The translations under genes were made by a program, and so were the position numbers. The notes beneath the pieces are model-generated. The model was not told the origin of the DNA. It was given only the letters and a program-made list of their open reading frames with translations, and made no database searches. Positions 16,258 through 16,716 of a stretch of DNA of 64,000 nucleotides are shown in pieces (within the stretch, counting starts at the first letter, position 1; each line of letters starts with the position of its first letter). The stretch covers positions 310,001 through 374,000 of the forward strand of contig NC_014507.1 in assembly GCF_000147875.1 (NCBI RefSeq). Reading direction: 5' to 3'. Source of the stretch: Methanolacinia petrolearia DSM 11571 (GTDB taxonomy: Archaea; Halobacteriota; Methanomicrobia; Methanomicrobiales; Methanomicrobiaceae).

Positions 16258-16369
16258 AGAAATCAGTAAGAATATTTAAACGCCAAAGGCAATTTAGGTT
16301 GCGGGTTACAACCGGATCATCCAGATTTGAAACGATAAATAAAACCGGACTTAAAAAAATAGAAAATGA

Positions 16370-16453
16370 TTAACCAATTACTCCTGAGAAGTTATCGGCG
16401 ATAATCTGAAGAATTTGTGCGAGTACTTTTATGAATAATATCCAGTCAAACAT
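16370..16453 (-). CDS. 27-residue amphipathic peptide gene
   Basis: A short ORF with a near-ideal ribosome site (GTGAGGAG, 16459-16466) five bases before its ATG. The peptide begins MFDWILFIKVLAQI and ends in SGVIG. Residues K9, Q13, Q16, D20 and S23 fall on one face of a helix and Ile/Leu/Phe/Val on the other, giving a strongly amphipathic helix with near-neutral charge. The gene has its own TATA-like box, a 5'UTR hairpin and a T-rich stretch after the stop. It resembles phenol-soluble-modulin-like or type I toxin-like peptides in form only; I know no homologue. Confidence 0.6.
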   Translation of the reverse strand: MFDWILFIKVLAQILQIIADNFSGVIG

Positions 16454-16466
16454 TTGTTCTCCTCAC

Positions 16467-16485
16467 TGCCCCTGAAAAAGGGGCA
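16467..16485 (-). promoter_or_regulatory. 5'UTR hairpin abutting the ribosome site of the 27-residue peptide
   Basis: Six-base-pair stem TGCCCC/GGGGCA with a 7-base loop immediately upstream of the GTGAGGAG ribosome site. Placement suggests control of translation or transcript stability. No T-run follows, so it is not a simple terminator. Confidence 0.5.
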
Positions 16486-16716
16486 TTTAATATGTCTGAG
16501 TTTCACTTAAAAAGGATTTTTAATTATCTCGACGGGTGAAAATTTATTATTTTTATAACCACCATTAAGAATATAATTTCATAAAATATCTGCCATTCGA
16601 ATAATATTTCATCAAAGGTCCGAAAAAGTCTCTCCACAATACAATAATTTGCCTTTTTCCTGCAATATTATGCTCTCCAAAAAGAATTATTCAATGCGGT
16701 ACCAATAATTCAGCAT

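What the first reader, a model, noticed from the sequence alone, without database searches (positions are those of the whole stretch)
16345..16562. A self-contained gene for a 27-residue amphipathic peptide with a 5'UTR hairpin
Seen: on the minus strand a TATA-like box, a leader of about 70 bases with a 6-bp hairpin abutting a near-consensus ribosome site, a 27-codon ORF at 16370-16453 and a T-rich end. The encoded helix puts K9, Q13, Q16, D20 and S23 on one face and hydrophobic residues on the other. Such compact units are known for type I toxins and phenol-soluble-modulin-like peptides in bacteria; nothing comparable is described to my knowledge in methanogens. The role as toxin, membrane regulator or signalling peptide is inference.
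Basis: partly seen in the sequence, partly recalled or inferred. Interest (0 to 1): 0.62.

Follow-up and report, generated by a model that had tools for sequence, protein, structure and literature searches.

The report
Conserved MFDW membrane-helix micropeptide gene
The tiny 27-residue peptide gene is real: it belongs to a previously unannotated family of 24-27-residue hydrophobic helical peptides that many methane-producing archaea of one order keep under strong selection, with its own promoter and a hairpin at the start of its messenger RNA; what it does in the membrane is not yet known.

Summary
The ORF at 16370-16453 (-) encodes MFDWILFIKVLAQILQIIADNFSGVIG. The genome length equals that published for Methanolacinia (Methanoplanus) petrolearia. 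Whole-genome searches of 232 genomes of the order found 27 intact members in 26 genomes (24-27 aa; one frame runs on to 37 aa; MFDW invariant; helix with a polar stripe). At least six unrelated loci carry the gene, and decayed copies exist elsewhere. dN/dS is about 0.09 in the best-sampled genus and about 0.15-0.23 in the window's own genus. No member was found outside the order among 393 genomes of the phylum, in viral contigs, in plasmids, or credibly in phages; no known protein family matches. Each unit carries its own Shine-Dalgarno and usually a TATA box and T-run. In all six members at the window's locus the predicted transcript starts at the foot of a strong hairpin of unrelated sequence (combined p about 4e-8, resting on predicted start sites). 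The 'toxin' reading is possible but untested: no antisense RNA or antitoxin signal was found, and the peptides are neutral to acidic. The favoured mechanism is a conditionally expressed one-helix membrane peptide that docks on a membrane partner or self-assembles. New family; kind known; function inferred.

The parts
16506..16513 (-). TATA-like box TTTTTAAG; the block ATTAAAAATC[C/T]TTTTTAAGTG is conserved to G016
16484..16484 (-). predicted transcription start (25 nt from the TATA centre, uncertain by about 3 nt)
   Evidence: inference
16467..16485 (-). 5'-terminal hairpin UGCCCCU-UUUUC-AGGGGCA (7 bp); in G016 the pairs change on both sides at two positions (C-G to U-A, U-A to G-C)
16459..16464 (-). 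Shine-Dalgarno GAGGAG, 5 nt before ATG, not inside the hairpin
16370..16453 (-). micropeptide gene, 27 codons plus stop: MFDWILFIKVLAQILQIIADNFSGVIG
16353..16359 (-). T-run (TTTTTTT), probable terminator; a T-run of 4 or more within 70 nt after the stop in 25 of 27 members

Best explanation
The feature is a genuine monocistronic gene for a one-helix membrane microprotein, a member of a family ('MFDW peptides') that seems restricted to the Methanomicrobiales. Shown from sequence: a conserved coding region under protein-level selection, own ribosome site, TATA-like box and T-run, and a structurally conserved hairpin at the predicted 5' end in the members at the aminotransferase locus. Inferred: a short mRNA of roughly 130 nt, protected or gated by its 5' stem-loop, is translated into a peptide that inserts into the cytoplasmic membrane as a single helix. 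The invariant MFDW end sits at the interface and the polar stripe (D3, K/N/S/T9, Q16, D/E/Q20) makes specific contacts with a membrane protein complex, tuning it when the gene is induced, as the accessory small proteins MtrR and MtrI do for the Mtr complex in Methanosarcina.
For: Invariant MFDW and strong purifying selection (dN/dS 0.09 in the best-sampled genus, 0.15-0.23 in the window's genus) point to a specific contact. Single standalone copies at conserved places within clades (upstream of the class V aminotransferase in one family; between thg1 and ileS in genus g34) but in different contexts between clades, like the standalone mtrI gene (PMC12774963). No toxin-typical antisense signal. 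High mean hydrophobicity (0.43-0.73 on the Eisenberg scale) with the polar residues on one side. 5'-terminal hairpin in all six aminotransferase-locus members.
Against: No partner has been identified; the varied contexts give no hint of one. Patchy presence, extra copies and decayed copies would also fit a toxin-like gene. The start site is predicted, not mapped, and there are no expression data.
Confidence: 0.45

Rival explanations
1. A type I-toxin-like peptide (works like TisB or ZorO): normally silenced at RNA level, it inserts into the membrane when made, depolarises it and slows growth.
For: Size and design match: TisB is 29 aa with a narrow polar strip D5-K12-Q19-D22-K26, and ZorO has a 5'UTR structure that hides its ribosome site (PMC8309996); here D3-K9-Q16-D20. 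Structured leaders, weak CTG/TTG starts in 16 of 27 members, second copies and relics.
Against: No conserved antisense block and no antisense TATA enrichment. SD pairing is not above shuffled leaders family-wide (p = 0.18). Net charge -2 to 0. Single conserved copies under strong selection in most carriers.
Confidence: 0.3
2. A secreted or surface-active peptide (phenol-soluble-modulin-like, leaderless bacteriocin or signal).
For: Short helix with a hydrophobic face.
Against: No signal sequence, transporter or immunity gene shared by the loci; neutral to acidic and more hydrophobic than such peptides usually are (general knowledge).
Confidence: 0.07
3. A leader peptide or upstream ORF that controls the downstream aminotransferase.
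For: In the window it lies 112 bp upstream on the same strand.
Against: In genus g34 the next gene downstream (ileS) is convergent. The aminotransferase has its own conserved promoter-like block near its ATG. A T-run lies between. Purifying selection acts on the peptide.
Confidence: 0.03
4. A chance ORF.
For: Very short.
Against: Conservation in 26 genomes, synonymous-change bias and syntenic placement.
Confidence: 0.01

Closest known systems
TisB / ZorO type I toxins of E. coli
   Same: 29 aa, one hydrophobic helix with a narrow polar strip (TisB), structured 5' leader
   Different: TisB has charged residues at four strip positions and a net positive charge; type I toxins have an antisense RNA antitoxin; no sequence relation found; reported only from bacteria in the papers read (PMC8309996; PMC12390103)
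MtrI (68 aa) and MtrR (49 aa) of Methanosarcina mazei
   Same: small methanogen proteins, MtrI a standalone gene in varied context, MtrR membrane-localised; both bind the membrane Mtr complex
   Different: longer; MtrI has a zinc ribbon and lies on the membrane complex; MtrI reported from Methanosarcinales; no sequence comparison was run
sORF_05 protein of M. mazei
   Same: hydrophobic helical small membrane protein of a methanogen whose overexpression slows growth (PMC11456600)
   Different: lies in an operon with a trimethylamine permease; sequences not compared
smalltalk / DUF6486 (NF033879, PF20096)
   Same: models of 29-31 positions that align weakly with the Trp and hydrophobic helix
   Different: E 0.065-0.21, 11.7-13.1 bits against cut-offs of 22.7 and 24.7; the model does not find these ORFs in the methanogen genomes tested

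Membership tests
Type I toxin-antitoxin | short hydrophobic membrane helix as toxin | tested here: met
   (sequence only)
Type I toxin-antitoxin | antisense RNA antitoxin at or near the locus | tested here: inconclusive
   no conserved antisense block, antisense TATA scores equal to shuffled; a trans-encoded RNA was not tested
Type I toxin-antitoxin | ribosome site hidden in leader structure | tested here: inconclusive
   leaders are more structured than shuffles but SD accessibility is not lower family-wide
Type I toxin-antitoxin | toxicity on overexpression | not testable with these tools
   needs experiment
Phenol-soluble modulins | sequence relation to the known families | tested here: not met
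   no Pfam or NCBIfam match to such a family
Leader peptide / upstream ORF | co-directional downstream gene regulated in common | tested here: not met
   downstream ileS is convergent in g34; separate promoter-like block for the aminotransferase
smalltalk / DUF6486 | score above the curated cut-off | tested here: not met
PyrD_leader (RF02373) | score above the gathering threshold | tested here: not met
   25.3 bits against 47, E 0.081
Known phage or defence protein | PHROGs / PADLOC match | tested here: not met

The most novel reading that the evidence does not exclude
The family is the first archaeal counterpart of type I-toxin-like membrane peptides: RNA-gated, often translated from weak start codons, and able to reduce membrane energy so that hydrogenotrophic methanogens enter dormancy.
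Probability: 0.25. Interest if true: 0.8.

Novelty: new variant of a known kind. Interest (0 to 1): 0.5.

Why it matters
It adds a conserved microprotein family, probably missed because of its size, to an order of hydrogen-using methanogens. If it tunes a membrane complex it is a new handle on methanogen energy metabolism; if it is toxin-like it would extend type I-like systems to archaea. The CTG starts behind strong Shine-Dalgarno sequences in 13 members also make a natural test of non-AUG initiation in archaea.

Tried and rejected
Chance ORF (rejected by conservation). Leader peptide of the aminotransferase (contexts differ, separate promoter-like block). Family-wide hiding of the Shine-Dalgarno (not significant against shuffles; in g34 the pairing arm may lie upstream of the predicted start). 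cis-antisense RNA (no signal). smalltalk/DUF6486 kinship (below cut-offs). Solved structures (best E 0.32). Scans of genome contigs and viral contigs gave only unconfirmed pattern matches, which is weak evidence of absence because tblastn confirmation of so short a peptide is insensitive. Plasmids: none; phages: one match at E 10 inside a capsid gene. No structure prediction was run (single proteins under 30 aa are not accepted). A first hmmsearch call failed on incompatible options and was repeated.

Full report
What is there. The minus strand at 16370-16453 encodes MFDWILFIKVLAQILQIIADNFSGVIG. The genome is one contig of 2,843,290 bases, the length published for Methanoplanus petrolearius SEBR 4847 (PMC3035365), now Methanolacinia petrolearia. 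Upstream lie the Shine-Dalgarno GAGGAG, a 7-bp hairpin and TTTTTAAG; a T-run follows the stop.

Conservation. In the family, tblastn finds the peptide at the same locus in the two other genomes of the genus (96% and 62% identity) and in G024 of another genus, E 0.005. A profile then finds it across the order: G176, G195, G158 and others at E down to 1e-14. Inspection of the same locus, after weak profile hits, added G007 (MFDWLGFAIMLLKFITENWDSLTGLF) and G022 (MFDWLGLIIMILKFVSENLDSIAALF), which the updated profile recovers at E 9e-9 and 1e-9, though it was built with them. In all there are 27 intact loci in 26 of 232 genomes; in one, G191, the frame runs on to 37 aa. In a sample of 393 genomes of the phylum every match lies in the order. 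A DNA pattern (ribosome site + HTG + FDW codons) found no further family member among the new candidates that were read; ten of its listed matches got no locus and most of these were not read.

Selection and coding. MFDW is invariant among intact members (G173 has a stop at W4 and counts as decayed). Pooled Nei-Gojobori dN/dS is 0.087 in genus g34, 0.15 over a wider set of 23, and 0.23 in the window's genus (0.15 for G000 vs G016), on JC-corrected counts. Pairs are not independent.

Context. In the window's family the gene sits upstream of a class V aminotransferase; in g34, between tRNA-His guanylyltransferase (thg1) and the convergent ileS; other copies lie elsewhere, so it is standalone (gene names by recognition of the sequences, not by a family scan). 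Decayed copies: G173, G167, G023 (W4Q, L10R, I14K; pN/pS 0.45) and a relic without start codon or Shine-Dalgarno at one orthologous locus in eight genomes of g19, one of which (G078) also has an intact copy about 410 bp away.

Transcript anatomy. TATA-like scores upstream exceed shuffles (7.29 against 6.54); antisense scores do not (6.57 against 6.51). In the six aminotransferase-locus members the start predicted from the TATA box falls within 3 nt of the first paired base of a 7-14 bp hairpin. Against dinucleotide shuffles the combined Fisher p over five leaders (G015 dropped as near-identical to G000) is 4e-8; about 1% of 34-nt stretches in the window have such a hairpin. Caveats: the starts are predicted, the TATA motif was chosen per leader after the hairpins had been seen, and the leaders are related, although the hairpin sequences are not, except within the genus, where two pairs change on both sides between G000 and G016. 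In g34 the predicted leader is about 26 nt and its pairing is not above chance for the Shine-Dalgarno.

Start codons. 13 CTG, 11 ATG, 3 TTG; six CTG members have no other start codon (ATG, GTG or TTG) in the open frame.

Function. The peptide is a hydrophobic helix with polar residues on one side; the moment is high but not extreme (2.9-16% of shuffles reach it). No Pfam, NCBIfam, PHROGs, PADLOC or PDB relative at a meaningful score. Strong sequence constraint with an invariant MFDW favours a specific membrane partner or self-assembly; the toxin-like reading stays open. Type I systems were, in the two papers read, reported only from bacteria (PMC8309996; PMC12390103).

Noticed in passing
L009, L011, L013, L016-L020, L022, L023, L028, L086, L088 (about position 1498): CTG start codons behind a Shine-Dalgarno in 13 family members.
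   Followed up: partly
window 16258-16310 (-), and the same place in related loci: Conserved CTAAATT(G/T)CC block and ACTGATTTTTATG before the aminotransferase, probably its promoter and start.
   Followed up: partly
window 16448-16518 (-): Sub-threshold Rfam PyrD_leader match, 25.3 bits against 47; probably chance, a hairpin plus ribosome site.
   Followed up: no
L090-L093, L096, L097, L099, L102: Relic of the peptide gene at one orthologous locus in eight g19 genomes, start codon and Shine-Dalgarno lost.
   Followed up: partly
L026 about 0.3-1 kb upstream of the peptide gene: Remnant of what looks like an IS630-type transposase next to one copy (recognised by eye).
   Followed up: no
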